Assembly: GCF_014822185.1 (NCBI RefSeq)
Contig: NZ_QVLR01000037.1
Location: 62,001-126,000, forward strand
Reading direction: 5' to 3'
Length of the DNA stretch: 64,000 bases
DNA from: Azoarcus sp. Aa7
Lineage (GTDB): Bacteria > Pseudomonadota > Gammaproteobacteria > Burkholderiales > Rhodocyclaceae
The notes below the pieces were generated by a model, which saw nothing but the letters and a program-made list of their open reading frames with translations, was not told where the DNA came from and made no database searches. The stretch's first letter is position 1. Every line of letters starts with the position of its first letter. The position numbers were made by a program, and so were the translations under genes. Positions 48,185 through 56,843 of this stretch are shown here, piece by piece.

Positions 48185-49000
48185 ATGGATTTTCTCGGTA
48201 CGAAACAGCCCCTGACCTCAACCGGCCTGGATCACGTACTGGATTTCTTAGACCTACAGTCCGGCGAGGCAGCTGCGATCTGGGCCGTGATCGAGGTGGA
48301 AACCTCGGGCGTGACACAGGGCTGTGGCTTTCGTGCCGACGGCAGACCGCAGATCCTTTACGAACGTCACATCTTTCGCCGTGAAACCGGCGGACGGTTC
48401 GACGGCAAGGCTCCTCATCTGTCGGGTCCGCAGGGTGGCTACGGGGGACTCTCCACGCAGTACGGCAAACTGCATCAGGCGGTCACACTTTGCGAAGAGG
48501 AACAGTTGGGCCTCGAACCGGCGCTGCGCTCGGTGTCCTGGGGCTTGGGGCAGGTGATGGGGTTCAACGCGGGGCTTGCCGGGTTCGATTCGGCCGAAGC
48601 CATGGTACGGGCGATGATGGACGGGGAGGATGCCCAGTTGTTGGCCATGGCGCATTTCCTACGCGCGCATAGCCTGCACAAGGCGCTGTTGCGCCGCGAC
48701 TGGGCTGGTTTCGCGCGGGGCTACAACGGCCGCGGTTATGCGCAAAATCAGTATGACGTCAAGCTGGAACAGGCGCATTCGCGGCTGTCGTCTGGTTCGC
48801 TGCCCAACCTGCAACTTCGCGCTGCGCAAATCGCATTGCTGTACCTCGGGTATGCGCCGGGTAGGGTCGACGGGGTCATCGGACAGCGTACCCGCAACGC
48901 GATCAGCAATTTCCGGCTGCAGGCAGGACTGCCGGCTGGAACAGACCTCGATGGACCGTGCTATCTCGCCCTGGTAGGGCGCGCCGGACTGCAGCCCTGA
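48185..49000 (+). CDS. N-acetylmuramidase with peptidoglycan-binding domain
   Basis: The product is 271 residues. About 1-195 is a DUF3380-type N-acetylmuramidase: AIWAVIEVETSG with the catalytic Glu, DGRPQILYERHIFRR, SWGLGQVMGFN and ARGYNGRGYAQNQYD are the recognised family landmarks. About 210-271 is a peptidoglycan-binding domain (QIALLYLGYAPGRVDGVIGQ) ending YLALVGRAG. There is no signal peptide. The start ATG has GGAGAG upstream. It cleaves the glycan strand as phage endolysins do, and it is the first of five same-strand genes of proteolytic and wall-lytic type. Confidence 0.9.
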   Translation: MDFLGTKQPLTSTGLDHVLDFLDLQSGEAAAIWAVIEVETSGVTQGCGFRADGRPQILYERHIFRRETGGRFDGKAPHLSGPQGGYGGLSTQYGKLHQAVTLCEEEQLGLEPALRSVSWGLGQVMGFNAGLAGFDSAEAMVRAMMDGEDAQLLAMAHFLRAHSLHKALLRRDWAGFARGYNGRGYAQNQYDVKLEQAHSRLSSGSLPNLQLRAAQIALLYLGYAPGRVDGVIGQRTRNAISNFRLQAGLPAGTDLDGPCYLALVGRAGLQP

Positions 49001-49027
49001 CGCATCCCATCATGTGGAGGAATGGTC

Positions 49028-51139
49028 ATGCCGAAAGTGTTTCTTGGAGCCAAGAGCGAGCCGGCTTACGAACTGCAGCAGAGCGAGGACCTGATCGCCG
49101 TGCGCACGCGCAGCGGCCGCTCGGTCAGACGCTCCGCGGGACCCGTGGCATCACCGCTAACCAGCGCGCTGGACGACAGTAACCTTGTCGTGTCATTTCC
49201 GGAAGCCGGAGTCGAGGTGTTTCGAGTACCGGTCGGAAAAGGGCAGCGCTCCATCGACGAACGCAAGGCCGTACTGCGTGCAGCGCCCGATGTGCGTTTT
49301 GCCGGGGGCGTGCTAATCGACCCCGCGACCGGCGAGCCCGTCCTTTACACGGAAAATCTATTCATTAAGTTCTCCGATGAGGCGGATGACGATGCCTGCC
49401 GAGAGGTTTTACGCAGCATGGGATTAAGCATTAAGGAGGAAGTGGGCTACACGGTCAACGGCTTCTTCGTGCAGGCATCCGAGGGCGTGGGCCAGTCAGT
49501 GTTCGACATCGCGTTGTCGCTGATTAGCCGTCAGGATGTGGAGTACTGCCACCCTGAGTTGATCCGGCCGCGTGCCCGCAAGGCCATCTTTGCGCAGCAA
49601 TGGCACCTGAAGAAAACTACCGTGAACGGTGTCGTGGTCGATGCGCACGCCAACGTGGATGCGGCCCATCAGGTGACGAAAGGCGAAGGCGTTACCATTG
49701 CCATCATCGATGACGGGGTCGACATCGACCACCTCGAATTCAGCAGTGCCGGCAAGATCGTCGCTCCGCGCGATGCGACACTGCAGTCGGACAATCCCCG
49801 CCCCAAGGACCCGTTTGGCACCGGCCCCGATAATGGTGAGAACCACGGTACGGCGTGCGCCGGCGTGGCGACTGCGAACGGTGTGCACGGGGCGTCTGGC
49901 GTGGCGCCCGCGGCCCGATTGATGCCGGTCCGCCTTGCCTCCGGGTTGGGTTCGCAGCGGGAGGCCGCCGCCTTCACCTGGGCGGCCGATCACGGCGCGG
50001 ACGTCATTTCGTGCAGTTGGGGGCCGCCGGATGGAGCGTGGTGGAATCTCAACGACCCCGCCCACAAGCGGAAGATCCCCTTGCCCGCGAGCACGCGCCT
50101 AGCGATCGACTACGTGACCACCACCGGCCGCGGCGGCAAGGGATGCGTGGTCTTGTTTGCGGCGGGTAACGGCAACGAGCCCGTGGACAACGACGGCTAT
50201 GCCAGTTGCGACAAGGTGATCGCCGTCGCGGCCTGTAACGACACGGGCAAGCGTAGCGTGTACAGTGATTTCGGCACAGCGGTCTGGTGCGCCTTTCCGA
50301 GCAGTGACTTTGGGCATGCCCCGTTTAACCAGCCGCCACCGCTGACGCCGGGCATCTGGACTACCGACCGCACCGGCGACCAGGGTTACAACTCGGGGAC
50401 CAGCGCGGACGGTGACACGGACGGCCTGTTCACGAGCCACTTCGGCGGCACCTCCAGTTCCTGCCCTGGTGCGGCGGGCGTGGCAGCCCTCGTTCTGGCG
50501 GTGAATCCGTCGCTCAAGTGGAACGAGGTGAAGGACTTGCTCAGACGCGCCTGCGACCGCATAGACCCGCAGGGTGGCGCCTACGATGCGGACGGTCACA
50601 GCGCGAAATACGGCTATGGCCGGCTAAATGCGCGCGCCGCAGTGGAACTTGCCAAACCGCAACCGCGCAACGAGATCACCATCAGCCGCCGCTTCGACGC
50701 ACCCATTCCGGATCTGCAGACCACGAGATTCACCCTTGACGTGCCCGACACCGAACAAGTTGAAGCGGTGAGCATCGGCGTGGCGCTCAGGCACAGCCAC
50801 ATCGGCGATCTGGTCATTACCATCGAGCCGCCCGCCGCGCTGTCTATGGCGCCGGTCACCTTGCACAACCGCGCGGGCGGTTCGCACAAGAGTATCAAGA
50901 AGGTTTACGACGCGGCGATCGTGCCGGCCCTGAGCAATTTCGCCGGAAAAGCCTGCAACGGAACTTGGACGTTGAGCATCCGCGACGCCGCAGCGCAGGA
51001 TGCGGGCGTACTTTCGACATTCTCGCTTCGTCTGTCTTTTTCACATGCGGAGCGGATGCTAACAAGCGAGGCGACACCGGACGCAAAGGCGGCAAGAAAA
51101 AGTGTGACACGCAAGAAGGCGGCGAAGGCGAGCGTGTGA
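49028..51139 (+). CDS. Subtilisin-like protease (S8) with P-domain
   Basis: The product is 703 residues; ATG 49028 is chosen because GGAGG lies 7 bp upstream (the in-frame ATG at 49022 is too close). The N-terminal 190 residues look like a propeptide region (RVPVGKGQRS; NLFIKFSDEADDD). The S8 catalytic triad is intact: D in IIDDGVDIDH (about 228), H in NHGTACAG (about 272) and S in GTSSSCPG (about 475). A proprotein-convertase P-domain follows (about 555-670, with HSHIGDLVITIEPP and CNGTWTLSIRD), then a basic Lys-rich tail. No signal peptide is present. It follows the muramidase after 27 bp. Confidence 0.93.
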   Translation: MPKVFLGAKSEPAYELQQSEDLIAVRTRSGRSVRRSAGPVASPLTSALDDSNLVVSFPEAGVEVFRVPVGKGQRSIDERKAVLRAAPDVRFAGGVLIDPATGEPVLYTENLFIKFSDEADDDACREVLRSMGLSIKEEVGYTVNGFFVQASEGVGQSVFDIALSLISRQDVEYCHPELIRPRARKAIFAQQWHLKKTTVNGVVVDAHANVDAAHQVTKGEGVTIAIIDDGVDIDHLEFSSAGKIVAPRDATLQSDNPRPKDPFGTGPDNGENHGTACAGVATANGVHGASGVAPAARLMPVRLASGLGSQREAAAFTWAADHGADVISCSWGPPDGAWWNLNDPAHKRKIPLPASTRLAIDYVTTTGRGGKGCVVLFAAGNGNEPVDNDGYASCDKVIAVAACNDTGKRSVYSDFGTAVWCAFPSSDFGHAPFNQPPPLTPGIWTTDRTGDQGYNSGTSADGDTDGLFTSHFGGTSSSCPGAAGVAALVLAVNPSLKWNEVKDLLRRACDRIDPQGGAYDADGHSAKYGYGRLNARAAVELAKPQPRNEITISRRFDAPIPDLQTTRFTLDVPDTEQVEAVSIGVALRHSHIGDLVITIEPPAALSMAPVTLHNRAGGSHKSIKKVYDAAIVPALSNFAGKACNGTWTLSIRDAAAQDAGVLSTFSLRLSFSHAERMLTSEATPDAKAARKSVTRKKAAKASV

Positions 51140-51279
51140 GAAGGGCGGCCGTCAGTGGGGATGCGGTTAGCGTGAGTCAAATGATCTTTCGTTGGGGGGA
51201 ATAGGTCGACGGCAATCTGCACCTTCCTGATGCTCGCGACAATCATAAGTCTTGAGAACAATCGCGCGGGGAGAGCAAT

Positions 51280-52629
51280 ATGTTAGAGGAAGAGGTTGTG
51301 CTGAACAGGACCACCGTGCTCCTTGCCGGCACACTGCTGCTCGCCGGCTGCACCATCCTTCGGCCAATTGAGCCGCCGCGGGGAGACGACACCTTCTTCC
51401 GCACGGAATTGCGCAAGGACGGCCCTGAGCGATGCGCTTTGGGAGGCGATCTGCCCGACGAATGCCTGATACCGGCCGACAATCTCGATAACTATGCTGG
51501 TGAACTCGGCCATGCGATCTGGGAAGCGGACCTATACCGGCGCCGCCTTGCCTTCCGCGGAGCAGAGCGCACGAACCTGAACAGCGCGTACAACGCCCTG
51601 CTGTGGCCCGTGGTCGCTTACGTGGGAGTGCGAAGCATCGCCGACCCCTCGGCCTCGCTGCTGCGCGACGCGGGGGCGGTGGCGCTGGCCAGCTACGGCC
51701 TGCTGAATTCGGGCATTCCGGAGCGCGACAAGCTCTACATCGAAGCCTCGCGCCGCATCGCCTGTGCTATCGCGCTGGCCACTGCCGACCTTTACCTGCG
51801 CGCCGACATCGAGGACTTGAACGGTGCTCCTGGCTCACCGCGCCGCTCGTTACCGCGCCACCAGGACACGCTCGAGCAGACGATGCAGCAACTCGACATC
51901 GCGATCGACCGCTACGAATATGGGCGCACGGTCTTGCTGAGCCGTCTCGAAACGCGCAAGGCCCCACCCGATGAACGAATGTCGATTCAACGCCGGCGCG
52001 ATGAAGCCCTTGGAAATTCAAAGCATTTGAGTCCCGCGGGCGGCAATGCGATCGAGAAGTTCTCAGCCGCGAGTCAGCGGAAGCTGGACGCGGCCGGGGC
52101 CCTGCTTGCCGAGTTGAACACGGCCTATCGCAGCTTGCAGTCCTCTGGCGAGCGCCTGCGCCTTCGGCGCAGCAATGTAGAAGCCAGCCTGAATGCCGCA
52201 CTGAACGCACGCGCACCGACCCTGGCCGAGCCGAGCGCCGTGGCGGCCCAGCTTGCCACGCTGACAGCGAAGTTCGACCGCGCAATTGCCGCGCGCGGCA
52301 CTGGCGGCCAGTTGAAGGCGGAGGGCGCACTGCAGACCTGGGAGGCCAATCGAATGACGCTGGCCGGGCTGACGCCAGAATCCCGCAAAGCCGTGCTGGC
52401 GTTCGAGAATGACGCGGCGGTGGACCTCGTTCGCGCTGCGCGCGCCGCTGAGCAGTGGAAAAAGGACATTGAAGCGCGCAAGACCTCGGTGCGCGAATCG
52501 GCCGCGCGCAATGGCTGCTCCGACGCGCTGTTTGCCGACGTCGGCCCGCTGCCGCTACCCGCGGTACCCGCGCCAGCGACCCCAGGCACCACAGGCAGCG
52601 GCGACGTACGGCCGTTGGAGGAGCGTTGA
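51280..52629 (+). CDS. Lipoprotein of the protease/wall-hydrolase cassette
   Basis: The product is 449 residues. A short signal with lipobox LLLAGC gives an acylated Cys at about residue 24. The body is helical with a partly hydrophobic centre (LLWPVVAYVGVRSIA; AGAVALASYGLL at about 108-145) and a long coiled-coil region (about 245-400). It ends in a Pro/Thr-rich tail. No domain is recognised. The start follows GGGAGAG. Its stop overlaps the start of the next gene (TGATG), so the two are coupled. It is probably the cell-envelope anchor or immunity-like partner of the enzymes. Confidence 0.85.
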   Translation: MLEEEVVLNRTTVLLAGTLLLAGCTILRPIEPPRGDDTFFRTELRKDGPERCALGGDLPDECLIPADNLDNYAGELGHAIWEADLYRRRLAFRGAERTNLNSAYNALLWPVVAYVGVRSIADPSASLLRDAGAVALASYGLLNSGIPERDKLYIEASRRIACAIALATADLYLRADIEDLNGAPGSPRRSLPRHQDTLEQTMQQLDIAIDRYEYGRTVLLSRLETRKAPPDERMSIQRRRDEALGNSKHLSPAGGNAIEKFSAASQRKLDAAGALLAELNTAYRSLQSSGERLRLRRSNVEASLNAALNARAPTLAEPSAVAAQLATLTAKFDRAIAARGTGGQLKAEGALQTWEANRMTLAGLTPESRKAVLAFENDAAVDLVRAARAAEQWKKDIEARKTSVRESAARNGCSDALFADVGPLPLPAVPAPATPGTTGSGDVRPLEER

Positions 52630-54041
52630 TGCGTAACGCCCGCCAAGCCTTCATCACCTTGTCTCGCATCCTGCAGCAGCGCCATTCCGGCGCCGTCGTG
52701 GCTGGGGCACCTGACTGGATCGACCCGGCGGCACTCGACTCGATCGCGCTGATGCTACCCGGAGCTGGTGCACCCGTTAGGGAACTGCGGCTTGCGCTGC
52801 GCGACGGCATTCCCGCGCATGCGCTCCCGCGGACACTGGCGCTGGCTCACGGCGAACTGCCACTCCACTGCGTGCGCGCAGCGGCGGCGCGTGTCCAGGC
52901 CGTGCCACTGGTCGAGCGAAGCGCGCCGCCCTTGGAGCGCGGCACCGGCACCTGCCTCGTGCGCGACCGCCTGAACCCCGACCGTTACTACCTTATCACC
53001 TGCGGCCACGTGGTGGCCCCGAGCGCGGTGGCGCGCTGGGACGAAGTGGTCAGCGTGCAGGTCGGTGGCAAGAGTTACGAGGGGAAGTTACGGGAGTGGC
53101 AGCCCACAGTCGGGGTTGGATTGCCAGCGTCGACCATCGATGCCGCACTGATTGAAGTCGACAGCACGGTCGTGCTGGCACTGCGGGAATTGGCATGCGA
53201 CTGGCTCCCGCAGGCGCTGGATGACGACATCCGGCGTGACCGCCAGGTGGCATTGCACCGTGCGCAGGGGCCGCTGCCTGGCATGCTGAAGGTGCATTGG
53301 TCGGGCAGGGTGAGCGTCCCCGACGGCGATGACGACCCAGACTATTTTCTACGCGACGCAATCGGGTATATGACGCGGGAGCCCACCAGCCCCGGCGACA
53401 GCGGTGCGCCTGTATGGAGCGAAGATGATGGGCTGCTAGGCATGCACATCGGCTCGGTCGCTCCGGAGGGGGCGTTTGGCGCCAACGCGGTACTTGGCCG
53501 TATTGCGCCTGTGCTGGAGTGGTACAACGTTAAGCCATTCACGCGCGATGACCCTGCCTCCCTCGGGGCGGCCGACCGCCCCGGTGTTCCACCGCGCCTG
53601 AACCTGCCGCCTGCCGGACTGCTGCTGCATCCTAACCAGAACGAGGTTATCGTCCTCGCCAAGACGATCTGGGGCGAGGCTCGCGGCGAAGGAGTAGACG
53701 GCATGAAGGCCGTGGCTTGCGTTGTGTGCAATCGGCTGCAGCGCGGCCACCGGGGGTGTCACACCGCGGCGGCCGTTTGCCTTTCTCCGAAGCAGTTCAG
53801 CTGCTGGAACGGCAACGATCCCAACCGACGGCGCCTGGACCGTATCGACCGCGAGCCCGACGCACAGTACCTGCAGGCCGTCGACATCGCTTCACAGGCG
53901 CTGGCCGGTGGCCTGCCCGATGTCACGCGGGGCGCGCTGCATTACGTCGTCAGCACGCTACGCGAGCGGCCCGACTGGTTAGCCGGCAAGGTGCCATGCG
54001 CCGTGATCGGCCGGCACGAGTTCTACAACGACATCCGATAG
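52629..54041 (+). CDS. Trypsin-like protease fused to SleB-type wall hydrolase
   Basis: The product is 470 residues. About 95-310 is a trypsin-fold serine protease: H127 in LITCGHVV, D in STIDAALIEV (about 171) and S258 in SPGDSGAPVW complete the triad. About 335-470 is a SleB-like cell-wall hydrolase: VIVLAKTIWGEARGEG with its catalytic Glu, then ACVVCNRLQ, SPKQFSCWN and the C-terminal HEFYND. The first 90 residues are helical and unknown. No signal peptide is seen. The ATG overlaps the lipoprotein stop, and the next gene begins 9 bp after its end. A protease joined to a glycan-cleaving enzyme in one chain is an unusual pairing. Confidence 0.88.
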   Translation: MRNARQAFITLSRILQQRHSGAVVAGAPDWIDPAALDSIALMLPGAGAPVRELRLALRDGIPAHALPRTLALAHGELPLHCVRAAAARVQAVPLVERSAPPLERGTGTCLVRDRLNPDRYYLITCGHVVAPSAVARWDEVVSVQVGGKSYEGKLREWQPTVGVGLPASTIDAALIEVDSTVVLALRELACDWLPQALDDDIRRDRQVALHRAQGPLPGMLKVHWSGRVSVPDGDDDPDYFLRDAIGYMTREPTSPGDSGAPVWSEDDGLLGMHIGSVAPEGAFGANAVLGRIAPVLEWYNVKPFTRDDPASLGAADRPGVPPRLNLPPAGLLLHPNQNEVIVLAKTIWGEARGEGVDGMKAVACVVCNRLQRGHRGCHTAAAVCLSPKQFSCWNGNDPNRRRLDRIDREPDAQYLQAVDIASQALAGGLPDVTRGALHYVVSTLRERPDWLAGKVPCAVIGRHEFYNDIR

Positions 54042-54050
54042 GCGGGCACG

Positions 54051-56843
54051 ATGGACAACACGATCCTCGACGTCGTGATCGGTTTGATGCTGATCTACGC
54101 CACGCTGGCGCTACTGGTGACCTCACTGCAGGAGTTTTTCGCCGGCACGCTGCTGCGTGGCCGTGTCGGCGTAATGCATACGCTGCTGGAGGAGGCCGTA
54201 GGGCACGATGCAGCGCTCAAAGACCGTCTGCTCGCGAATCCCCTCGTGTTCGCACTTTCGGTCGGCGAGAAGGCAAAGTCGGGCGTATTTTTTCCGACCG
54301 GGCCTTCGGCCTTGCCGCCAGACGTTTTCGCGCGAGCGCTGCTGATGGAGGTGGATACGTCCCAATCGCATCGGCATCCATCGGAGTTGCATGCAACACC
54401 GCAGCAGTTCCTCGACGCGCTGAAGGAAAAAGGCCTGCATCTGGTTGGCGGGGAAGAACGCAAGATTGTCAGTGTGCTGCGCGGTCTGGTCGTCGGGCGT
54501 GAGGCGGACTGGGGCGGGTTCGAGGCCGCCATCTCCGCCTGGTTCCAGCATATCGGCGATCGCTCGGAGGGCTGGTTCAAGCGACGCAGTACGTGGTGGA
54601 CGGTAGGCATCTCGTTGACACTGTCAGTTGCCATTAATGCGGATAGCATGAACATCGCACAGGTACTCAGCAGCGACGGCGCGCTGCGCAGCGGCCTGGC
54701 GGACCTGGCTGAGCGCGTGGTCGCGCAGCGCGAGGCGGCCCCCGCTAGTCCGGCCACCGCGGCTTCCGCCGCGCAGCGGCCGGAGGTGCTCGTCTCGGCG
54801 CGGTTGATGTATGCGTACAACCGTCTGCATCCGATGTACTTCCAGGACGACGAGATCGCCCGCTTCGGGCACAAGCTTCTGCCGGTGAGCAAGGCGTGTG
54901 CCGTAGGTTGGCTTTCAAGCGACGATGGCGGACCGCAACTCGCGAGGGTGCAGAAACAGTACATTTCCGATTCCAACACATGGCTTGAAGTAATCCCGGC
55001 CCTAAAGGCCGTAATCGAAGACGCGATTGTTGGCTATCAGCCGCGCGGGGTTGGAGGCACATTGAAGGAGACGAAGCCGAGTACGTCGTCCAGTGCTGCC
55101 TCGTCTGACAATGGCGCGGACACTGGTTCAGTCGAGACGCTGCGTCGTGCCCGCAGCTGTCTGATCCAGATTTCCGCTTGGGTGGATGCCGCTGCCCCCG
55201 CAAGCAAGGATCCGGCGGTGCAACGTGCAATGCAGGAAGCGGCTGCGGCGTTGGAAGACAGCAAGCGGGCACTGACCGAATTGCTGCGCCAGCAGCGCGT
55301 GCCTTTGCGGCTGGCGCAGATGTTCAGCGCCGACCCCAAAACTTATGCCGAATGCCTGCGCGATGCCACGAGCCGCGACGCGCTGCGCGTCTGCATGGAA
55401 CCTGCGCTCGGCGACCTCTCGCGGTTGCCGCTGGGATGGGGCGGGGCCAACGTCCACGCGCAGTTCTGCCAAGTCATGACAGCCAAGAAGGACGAAAGGC
55501 TTGAAGACCTCAAGGCTGATTCCGGATTGTTCCACCTGTGCGTGGGAGAAGCGGACGCAAGACCCGAACTCGGATTGCCGGCAATGAAGCTGGACGCCCA
55601 GCCGGTGGGCACGTGGGTAGCATGGGCTTTTGGTATCATGGTGACTACCTTTTTCATATCCCTCGGCGCGCCGTTCTGGTTTGATCTGCTCGGCAAGCTC
55701 GTGAAAATGCGGTCCGCCGGCCGCACGCGCGATCAGGAGGATAACGCCCGCAAGGCCGCTGGCACACTGCCGCTGCTGCCGCCTCAGGCCGGCGGCGGTG
55801 GTGCCGCCGCTGCGGCCCCGGCCGTCTTACCACCGCCGGCGCCATTCACGCCCGCCGCAAACCGCTTCGAGGACCAACTCACAAAGCGTGAAATCATTGC
55901 GCTGCAGCAGCGGCTCGGAGTCATACCGATAAGCGGCGTGCTTGATGCGGCGACGCGACTCAAGCTGCGCTCGGTGCAGTCGGCGCAAGGTCTGGGCGAG
56001 ACTGACACGCTGACGCCGGCGTCGTATCTGGCGCTGGTGGGTCGGCCGGCACTCGCCAATGAGGTGGCCGCGTCGGTTACCGGCATTCGACCGCGACTGC
56101 GCCAACTGCATCCGCAGGTGCCGGCTCTCGCGAGAAACCTGATGCCGATTCTCGGCTTCCCGGGGCGCATCCCGGCCGACGAAAGGAGTTTCAGCGACGA
56201 CTTACGTGCCTTGACCGTCCTATATCGCTACAAGATGGAGAACGCAACGCCAGAGGCCGAACGCACAGTGTTCAAACTCGCACGCGATAACGCCGCAGCA
56301 CTCGACGAACTGGACGAAGCGCTGATGAACGAAATCTTGTCCTCCCGTAATGTGCCGCCGAACTGCGCGCGCGACGCGTCGGCACCGTGGCTGGACTGGG
56401 CGATCGGCGAACTTGGGCAAGTCGAGAACAGTGCGAGCAGCCGGCAGGCGAGCAATCCACGCATCTGCGAATATCTGGACGCATTGCCGGCGCCGCTCGG
56501 AGATCAGGGCGACAGGACAGCGTGGTGTGGAGCTTTCGTGTGCTGGGTAATGAAAAAGCACAACGACGCGCCGATCGGCGGCGTATTGCCACCAGTGCCG
56601 AAGGTGCCTGAAAGCGCGGCAAGTTGGATCACCTGGGGGCAGCAGCGCAACCCGGTCTTGCCGCAGCGAGGCGACGTGGTCGTCGTGAAATCTCCCGGCA
56701 CGTCGAGTGGCCACCATGTCGGGTTCTGTTTAGCGGTAGATGCCACCCACGTCTGGCTACTCGGCGGCAACCAGATGGATGGCAGCCGCGTGTGCCTGTC
56801 GTGTTTTGTTCTCGCTGGCGTGGTGACAGCCTCCTTTGGATGA
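54051..56843 (+). CDS. Membrane protein with peptidoglycan-binding and CHAP-like domains
   Basis: The product is 930 residues. An N-terminal helix (VVIGLMLIYATLALLVTSLQ) and the following region match a widespread uncharacterised membrane family (ANPLVFALSV...LPPDVFARALL). Further helices lie near 180-200 and 519-547. A Pro/Ala linker leads to a peptidoglycan-binding domain (about 605-665; LTKREIIALQQRLGV, ending YLALVGRPA). The C-terminal part (about 775-930) is an NlpC/P60-CHAP amidase-like domain: TAWCGAFVCW with Cys about 825, HHVGF with His about 887 and GGNQ. If the linker and end face the periplasm it would cleave peptide crosslinks. It is the last gene of the cassette. Confidence 0.85.
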   Translation: MDNTILDVVIGLMLIYATLALLVTSLQEFFAGTLLRGRVGVMHTLLEEAVGHDAALKDRLLANPLVFALSVGEKAKSGVFFPTGPSALPPDVFARALLMEVDTSQSHRHPSELHATPQQFLDALKEKGLHLVGGEERKIVSVLRGLVVGREADWGGFEAAISAWFQHIGDRSEGWFKRRSTWWTVGISLTLSVAINADSMNIAQVLSSDGALRSGLADLAERVVAQREAAPASPATAASAAQRPEVLVSARLMYAYNRLHPMYFQDDEIARFGHKLLPVSKACAVGWLSSDDGGPQLARVQKQYISDSNTWLEVIPALKAVIEDAIVGYQPRGVGGTLKETKPSTSSSAASSDNGADTGSVETLRRARSCLIQISAWVDAAAPASKDPAVQRAMQEAAAALEDSKRALTELLRQQRVPLRLAQMFSADPKTYAECLRDATSRDALRVCMEPALGDLSRLPLGWGGANVHAQFCQVMTAKKDERLEDLKADSGLFHLCVGEADARPELGLPAMKLDAQPVGTWVAWAFGIMVTTFFISLGAPFWFDLLGKLVKMRSAGRTRDQEDNARKAAGTLPLLPPQAGGGGAAAAAPAVLPPPAPFTPAANRFEDQLTKREIIALQQRLGVIPISGVLDAATRLKLRSVQSAQGLGETDTLTPASYLALVGRPALANEVAASVTGIRPRLRQLHPQVPALARNLMPILGFPGRIPADERSFSDDLRALTVLYRYKMENATPEAERTVFKLARDNAAALDELDEALMNEILSSRNVPPNCARDASAPWLDWAIGELGQVENSASSRQASNPRICEYLDALPAPLGDQGDRTAWCGAFVCWVMKKHNDAPIGGVLPPVPKVPESAASWITWGQQRNPVLPQRGDVVVVKSPGTSSGHHVGFCLAVDATHVWLLGGNQMDGSRVCLSCFVLAGVVTASFG

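What the first reader, a model, noticed from the sequence alone, without database searches (positions are those of the whole stretch)
48185..56843. Five-gene protease and cell-wall-hydrolase cassette
Seen: five same-strand genes with tight spacing (27, 140, overlap, 9 bp) encode a DUF3380 muramidase with a peptidoglycan-binding domain, an S8 protease with P-domain, a lipoprotein, a trypsin-fold protease fused to a SleB-type hydrolase, and a membrane protein with peptidoglycan-binding and CHAP-like domains. All catalytic residues appear intact. Three wall-cutting and two proteolytic activities in one operon, with no phage structural genes, match no system I can name. Inference: a lysis, interbacterial killing, or protease-triggered defence device.
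Basis: partly seen in the sequence, partly recalled or inferred. Interest (0 to 1): 0.88.

Follow-up and report, generated by a model that had tools for sequence, protein, structure and literature searches.

The report
Membrane-tethered wall-cutter and protease cassette
A bacterial chromosome carries a compact set of genes for three different cell-wall-cutting enzymes, two proteases, a lipoprotein and a membrane anchor; relatives rearrange the same parts, which suggests a non-viral device that bursts the cell open, perhaps to release injection particles built inside it.

Summary
Five same-strand genes encode a muramidase, an S8/P-domain protease, a lipoprotein, a trypsin+SleB fusion, and a 3-TM protein ending in an NlpC/CHAP-type domain; catalytic motifs look intact, and three of the four enzyme proteins have no export signal. 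It is not a recognisable phage remnant. The exact five-gene set was seen only here, but overlapping sets recur in other fusions: an order-level relative (lipoprotein-like / trypsin-SleB / membrane-CHAP-muramidase), a same-genus relative (the last two), an R. phaseoli plasmid (lipoprotein / CHAP-SleB / membrane protein), a Hymenobacter plasmid (membrane protein / amidase / trypsin-S8). That argues for one functional unit. The anchor belongs to an unnamed, widespread family with wall hydrolases beside it in 10 or 11 of 80 loci. In Trinickia, Pinibacter and Mucilaginibacter it lies in or beside contractile-injection (eCIS) genes, and all six carriers among 61 relatives, this genome included, have an eCIS marker; wider samples show weak or no association. 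Best reading: a non-phage self-lysis module with hydrolases held cytoplasm-side until triggered; eCIS release is a plausible, unproven client. An effector role is the main rival. No function was tested.

The parts
48185..49000 (+). g1: N-acetylmuramidase (PF11860, DUF3380) + PG_binding_1, 271 aa, no signal peptide by hydropathy
   Evidence: 43% identical to a muramidase directly after the g5-family gene in Sphingomonas BK580 (L110)
49022..51139 (+). g2: subtilisin/kexin-like S8 protease with P-domain, 705 aa, no signal peptide by hydropathy
51280..52629 (+). g3: lipoprotein (lipobox LAGC by eye), 449 aa, no known family
   Evidence: structure prediction useless (pLDDT 41)
52626..54041 (+). g4: Trypsin_2 protease (about 52941-53444) fused to SleB-type Hydrolase_2 (about 53685-54026), 471 aa, no signal peptide by hydropathy
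   Evidence: same fusion in G003 (Pfam) and in G112 (similarity)
54051..56843 (+). g5: 930 aa; 3-TM anchor family at aa 1-230 and TM3 about aa 522-555, PG-binding-like about aa 626-661, NlpC/P60-CHAP-type (TIGR02594) about aa 775-930
55614..55712 (+). g5 third TM region with the LGAPFWFD motif of the anchor family

Best explanation
A non-phage, self-acting envelope-breaching (lysis) module. Shown: three wall hydrolases of different families (muramidase, SleB-type, NlpC/CHAP-type), two serine proteases, a lipoprotein and a 3-TM anchor are encoded together, and relatives carry overlapping sets in different fusions. Predicted: g1, g2 and g4 have no export signal, and the charge pattern of the anchor family puts the C-terminal hydrolase part of g5 on the cytoplasmic side, so the enzymes are stored away from the wall. 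Inferred: when the membrane is breached, or the hydrolases are cut loose by the proteases, the wall is cut at several bonds and the cell opens, as with a holin-endolysin-spanin cassette or a type 10 secretion system. Inferred and weaker: in several lineages the client is a cytoplasm-assembled contractile injection particle (eCIS) that needs lysis to get out.
For: The same activities are fused differently elsewhere: G112 lipoprotein-like / trypsin-SleB / membrane-CHAP-muramidase, the first two overlapping by 4 bp as in the window; G003 trypsin-SleB / membrane-PGbinding-CHAP-muramidase; R. phaseoli lipoprotein / CHAP-SleB / membrane protein / metallophosphoesterase; Hymenobacter membrane protein / amidase / trypsin-S8 fusion; Sphingomonas membrane protein / muramidase / PGbinding-CHAP. 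Of 66 same-strand neighbours from 43 of 80 family loci, 9 have PG_binding_1, 7 Amidase_2, 3 M15_4, 1 Muramidase, 1 S8; in 66 control genes none of these is among the 25 families shown, of 117. Topology counts. eCIS: 4 of 80 loci are in or beside eCIS genes (Trinickia x2, Pinibacter, Mucilaginibacter); among 61 relatives Pvc16_N is in 6 of 6 carriers and 13 of 55 non-carriers (p 4.9e-4, 1.6e-3 without own, 0.009 without own and with genomes of 3.5 Mb or more).
Against: No lysis was tested. Most family members that I looked at stand alone or beside other enzymes (Tle1-like DUF2235, patatin, haloperoxidase), so the anchor is not lysis-specific. In the window's genome the eCIS cluster is on another contig. 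Outside the window's relatives the eCIS association is weak: 3 of 12 carriers versus 16 of 386 in the phylum sample (p 0.015; 0.084 without own), 3 of 9 versus 7 of 82 in the order of Chitinophaga filiformis (p 0.057; 0.18 without the centre; 0.50 with genomes of 3.5 Mb or more). No protein is shown to form holes. The lipoproteins of the different loci are not detectably related by sequence, and that of G112 has an imperfect lipobox by eye. TM2 of g5 was not found by hydropathy.
Confidence: 0.45

Rival explanations
1. Antibacterial effector cassette: the hydrolases are cargo of an eCIS or T6SS that digests rival envelopes, with the lipoprotein as immunity protein.
For: Family members are paired with Tle1-like DUF2235, patatin and amidases, known antibacterial effector folds; some family genes lie at or near eCIS operons, whose 3' ends tend to hold eCIS-associated toxins, one of them a predicted peptidoglycan hydrolase (PMC8213781, passages); g1, g2 and g4 have no signal peptides.
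Against: No eCIS_core, VgrG, PAAR, Hcp or Rhs domain was found by Pfam in the five proteins (g3 and g5 have no Pfam match at all); a 3-TM anchor fused to the hydrolase is an awkward cargo; two proteases fit a wall effector poorly; lipoproteins are not alike in sequence.
Confidence: 0.25
2. Envelope remodelling or nutrient-scavenging enzymes with an ordinary housekeeping role.
For: Neighbours look metabolic (by eye); enzymes of common families.
Against: Patchy distribution (g5 family in 6 of 61 relatives; g4 in 3 of 399, one of them SleB only), no export signals in g1, g2, g4, wall hydrolase fused to an inner-membrane-type protein.
Confidence: 0.12
3. Anti-phage abortive-lysis system triggered by proteolysis.
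For: Protease plus lytic effector logic; some relatives lie on conjugative plasmids.
Against: PADLOC finds only a generic subtilase match, 2.4e-11, for one of five proteins; Pfam shows no sensor or NTPase domain, though g3 and g5 have no Pfam match at all.
Confidence: 0.08
4. Remnant of a prophage lysis cassette.
For: g1, g4 and g5 C-termini match PHROG endolysins or tail lysozymes.
Against: An anchor-family query has no match in 50,697 phage records and the family one locus in the viral-contig scan; proteases and this lipoprotein are not usual phage lysis genes (recalled); frames intact; no phage genes recognised beside it by eye.
Confidence: 0.03

Closest known systems
Type 10 secretion system / holin-endolysin-spanin lysis cassette (Yersinia entomophaga, PMC10847048, outline and abstract read)
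   Same: Works like it, if the reading is right: membrane protein, wall hydrolase without export signal and lipoprotein in one cassette outside a phage, lysing the producer to free large cytoplasm-folded cargo.
   Different: Three wall hydrolases instead of one, fused to or beside an unrelated 3-TM family, two serine proteases, no recognised holin or spanin; lysis untested.
Afp lysis cassette upstream of an eCIS cluster (review PMC12961389, passages read)
   Same: Wall hydrolases plus membrane protein linked to eCIS genes in some related loci (Trinickia, Pinibacter, Mucilaginibacter).
   Different: In this genome eCIS and cassette are on different contigs; the membrane family has no name.
eCIS-associated toxins (Geller et al. 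2021, PMC8213781, passages read)
   Same: Peptidoglycan hydrolase and peptidase activities encoded in eCIS operons.
   Different: No eCIS_core domain found in the five proteins; membrane-anchored architecture.
T6SS Tle1-like (DUF2235) effector loci
   Same: Two family members (G023, G058) directly follow a Tle1-like gene (Pfam for G023; similarity for G058).
   Different: No T6SS part among the five genes.

Membership tests
Unnamed 3-TM 'LGAPFWFD' anchor family | WF..(M)DR..GW(Y/F)KR-type stretch before TM2 and LGAPFWFD-type motif at TM3 | tested here: met
   Nine-row alignment with 15 invariant columns; profile match 4.2e-72 in the own genome
Unnamed 3-TM 'LGAPFWFD' anchor family | Three TM segments | tested here: inconclusive
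   Hydropathy of g5 gives aa 5-23 and 522-540, plus 911-929 inside the CHAP-type fold; TM2 not found, but the model has a helix at aa 154-195. In the family 50 of 81 members give three segments
Phage-type lysis cassette / T10SS | Endolysin-class wall hydrolase without signal peptide | tested here: met
   PHROG endolysin matches for g1, g4, g5; no N-terminal hydrophobic segment in g1, g4
Phage-type lysis cassette / T10SS | Hole-forming membrane protein (holin) | not testable with these tools
   g5 has TM segments but no Pfam match; activity needs experiment
Phage-type lysis cassette / T10SS | Spanin pair (inner-membrane protein plus outer-membrane lipoprotein) | tested here: inconclusive
   g3 has a lipobox by eye but no match in Pfam or PHROGs and 449 aa; no inner-membrane spanin recognised
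eCIS-linked lysis module | Located in or beside an eCIS cluster | tested here: not met
   eCIS marker of this genome on contig C4, cassette on C37; met in 4 of 80 relatives' loci
T6SS/eCIS effector | VgrG, PAAR, Hcp, Rhs or eCIS_core delivery domain in the gene set | tested here: not met
   Pfam scan of all five proteins; none found, g3 and g5 without any Pfam match
Known anti-phage defence system | Match to a PADLOC system's proteins | tested here: not met
   One generic subtilase match for g2, nothing for the other four
Prophage remnant | Phage homologues of the core part and phage genes beside it | tested here: not met
   Anchor family: 0 records of phages, 1 locus of viral contigs; neighbours read by eye, window not fully scanned

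The most novel reading that the evidence does not exclude
An undescribed, phylum-spanning programmed-lysis (release) device built on an unnamed 3-TM family: multi-specificity wall hydrolases tethered to the cytoplasmic face of the inner membrane and freed by dedicated serine proteases, serving as the missing exit route for contractile injection particles whose gene clusters lack a lysis cassette.
Probability: 0.25. Interest if true: 0.85.

Novelty: new variant of a known kind. Interest (0 to 1): 0.6.

Why it matters
A review states that some eCIS loci completely lack a lysis cassette (PMC10598620, passages read), so how those particles leave the producer is open. A recurring, non-phage set of wall hydrolases around one membrane family, in some lineages among eCIS genes, is a concrete and testable candidate.

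Tried and rejected
Scan of genome contigs with g5 alone found nothing; the family alignment did. Sequence and profile comparison of the lipoproteins (g3, G112, Rhizobium) showed no homology beyond the signal peptide, so a 'recurring lipoprotein' means position and type only. Plasmid search with g3: no match. R. ruizarguesonis has the Rhizobium-type lipoprotein beside a CHAP plus Phage_lysozyme2 protein, with no anchor among the listed features. Structure of g3 from one sequence was useless. Foldseek of the g5 model against PDB: no match at E<=0.001; against viral models four matches at E<=0.001, named tail fibre, tail lysozyme and peptidase proteins and one without name. The anchor domain alone was not folded and searched, so I do not claim a new fold. 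PDB sequence searches with g5 and with the family: nothing convincing. Motif scans of relatives missed the muramidase pattern in G112 and L110 and the S8 Asp in Hymenobacter; by eye my patterns were too narrow there.

Upstream of trypsin-SleB in G003 an ORF end overlaps its start by 4 bp and resembles by eye the end of the G112 lipoprotein, but the same frame has a stop about 60 codons further up and the contig then ends, so I do not count a lipoprotein there.

Literature: no paper of the library holds the string LGAPFWFD; searches combining trypsin-like, cell wall hydrolase, subtilisin, lipoprotein and biological conflict, haloperoxidase, patatin and DUF2235, and eCIS lysis-cassette terms listed no title on this cassette; from the first two I saw listings only. 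'Not in print' rests on these searches.

My simple gene caller took wrong frames in some GC-rich loci (seen in L050/L061 and re-read); neighbour counts include such spurious ORFs. The GH19-like nature of the Trinickia PG_binding ORFs is recalled from a motif; Pfam found only PG-binding domains.
Full report
Observation. The five ORFs, strand, spacing and domains are as described. Catalytic-type motifs are present in all (trypsin Asp by eye), with S8 residues also aligned to kexin and the muramidase to endolysins. Hydropathy finds an N-terminal hydrophobic segment only in g3 and g5. The last ~155 residues of g5 fold like NlpC/P60-CHAP enzymes (best VIA-align Z 9.6, rmsd 3.1, 118 aligned).

The anchor. 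The first part of g5 belongs to a family of roughly 300-residue membrane proteins; g5 and two members scanned match no Pfam family over its cut-off. It was found in 6 of 61 relatives, 12 of 398 genomes of the phylum (at most 5 candidates a genome scored), 9 of 91 of the order of Chitinophaga filiformis, and at least 522 loci of the genome collection, of which 80 were kept. Fifteen columns are invariant in the nine-row alignment, five of them in LGAPFWFD. Mean Lys+Arg counts in 15 residues around the three TMs of 50 members are 0.44 before and 1.72 after TM1, 3.48 before and 1.68 after TM2, 1.14 before and 1.82 after TM3 (31 of 81 members with another number of segments were left out, and g5 itself was not among them). 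By the positive-inside rule this gives N-out and C-in, so the hydrolase end of g5, and the CHAP plus muramidase ends of its G003 and G112 relatives, would face the cytoplasm. In g5 over 200 extra residues lie between TM2 and TM3.

Recurrence. G112, an order-level relative, has a lipoprotein-like gene (523 aa, imperfect lipobox by eye), trypsin-SleB (386 aa, 30% to g4) and membrane-CHAP-muramidase (1170 aa) in the window's order, the first two overlapping by 4 bp. G003, same genus, has trypsin-SleB followed by a 1182-aa membrane-PGbinding-CHAP-muramidase protein (CHAP under its cut-off); its contig ends just upstream. In R. phaseoli a lipoprotein, a CHAP-SleB protein (CHAP just under its cut-off), a free-standing anchor and a metallophosphoesterase are adjacent. 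In R. etli a related lipoprotein and the same type of hydrolase are followed by an S8 protease gene, without an anchor that I recognised. In Hymenobacter anchor, amidase and a trypsin-S8 fusion are adjacent. In Sphingomonas BK580 anchor, muramidase (43% to g1) and a PG-binding-CHAP-type protein are adjacent. In a Bacteroidales genome the anchor is followed by an S8 protease (L102). The exact five-gene set was seen nowhere else; g3 had no relative in the other 398 genomes of the order sample or in the plasmids.

Neighbourhood statistics. From 43 of the 80 kept loci, 66 same-strand neighbours (within two places, gaps up to 120 bp, at least 90 aa) were scanned: PG_binding_1 9, Amidase_2 7, M15_4 3, PAP2 2, Muramidase 1, S8 1, eCIS_core 1 (25 of 91 families shown). 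In 66 control genes four to seven places away (of 137 drawn) none of these is among the 25 of 117 families shown, but one is a CIS tape-measure protein, from Trinickia. Wall hydrolases thus adjoin the anchor in 10 or 11 of 80 loci. 24 of 84 loci with the family have no same-strand neighbour within 350 bp. Other partners are Tle1-like DUF2235, patatin and vanadium haloperoxidase.

eCIS. In two Trinickia species the anchor gene follows tape measure, AAA ATPase, Pvc16 and, in one, an eCIS_core gene; a PG_binding ORF follows on the other strand. In Pinibacter anchor and amidase precede Pvc16 and an eCIS_core-type match; in Mucilaginibacter three eCIS_core-type genes precede them. That is 4 of 80 loci by tblastn with 16 eCIS queries. 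A rough Poisson estimate for three independent lineages among 80 loci is 0.0015 if 30% of carriers have an eCIS, 0.006 if 50% (assumed cluster 30 kb, genome 5 Mb). This genome has Pvc16, gp19 tube, CIS_tube, GPD, gp25, baseplate J and an AAA ATPase on contig C4 (a sheath-like ORF had no Pfam match), on another contig than the cassette. Pvc16_N was found in 18 of 40 genomes or records chosen because they carry parts of the system (the 5 plasmid records all negative; 0 of 14 control genomes). By my grouping of the other 35, 10 of 14 carriers with wall-hydrolase or protease neighbours versus 8 of 21 others (p 0.055). In samples drawn without regard to eCIS: relatives 6 of 6 versus 13 of 55; phylum 3 of 12 versus 16 of 386; order of Chitinophaga 3 of 9 versus 7 of 82 (its centre was chosen as a carrier). 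Without centres, and with G051 counted once, the Mantel-Haenszel odds ratio is 7.3 (p 1e-4), carried mostly by the relatives; in the Chitinophaga order nothing remains when genomes under 3.5 Mb are dropped (p 0.50). Phylogeny was not controlled.

Mechanism and novelty. The anatomy resembles a lysis cassette: enzymes without export signals, a membrane protein, a lipoprotein. It differs from the phage type and from the T10SS (PMC10847048, abstract) in its families and in having several hydrolases and proteases. Reviews say that some eCIS loci lack a lysis cassette (PMC10598620, passages) while Afp has one (PMC12961389, passages). I therefore favour a self-lysis module, with eCIS release as a plausible client, against an effector role as the main rival. 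It is a new variant of a known kind with an unnamed core family.

Noticed in passing
G000 contig C4 from 17155 (L139, L140, L150): A contractile injection (eCIS-type) cluster in the window's own genome, with Pvc16, tube, baseplate and AAA ATPase genes; no wall hydrolase recognised by eye in the part read.
   Followed up: partly
L032 1-6906, L035 839-6912, L148 744-6921: Similar plasmid module in Paracoccus, Agrobacterium and Rhizobium: three hypothetical genes, a vanadium-dependent haloperoxidase and then the same membrane-anchor family.
   Followed up: no
L105 7132-7971 and L108 10090-10928: A pair of a ~160-aa lipoprotein-like and a ~110-aa hydrophobic protein near the anchor gene in Sphingomonas and Mucilaginibacter, alike by eye.
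   Followed up: no
L014 6808-9110, L016 8482-10723: Tle1-like (DUF2235) gene directly followed by a free-standing anchor-family gene in two relatives.
   Followed up: partly
L013 290-1501: RES-domain gene (Pfam 1.6e-18) downstream of the G003 version of the cassette.
   Followed up: no
L149 3884-6930: Patatin-like phospholipase gene (record annotation) 11 bp before an anchor-family gene on a Rhizobium plasmid.
   Followed up: no
L152 5001-6737: The only anchor-family relative in the viral-contig scan; no match to my eCIS queries.
   Followed up: partly
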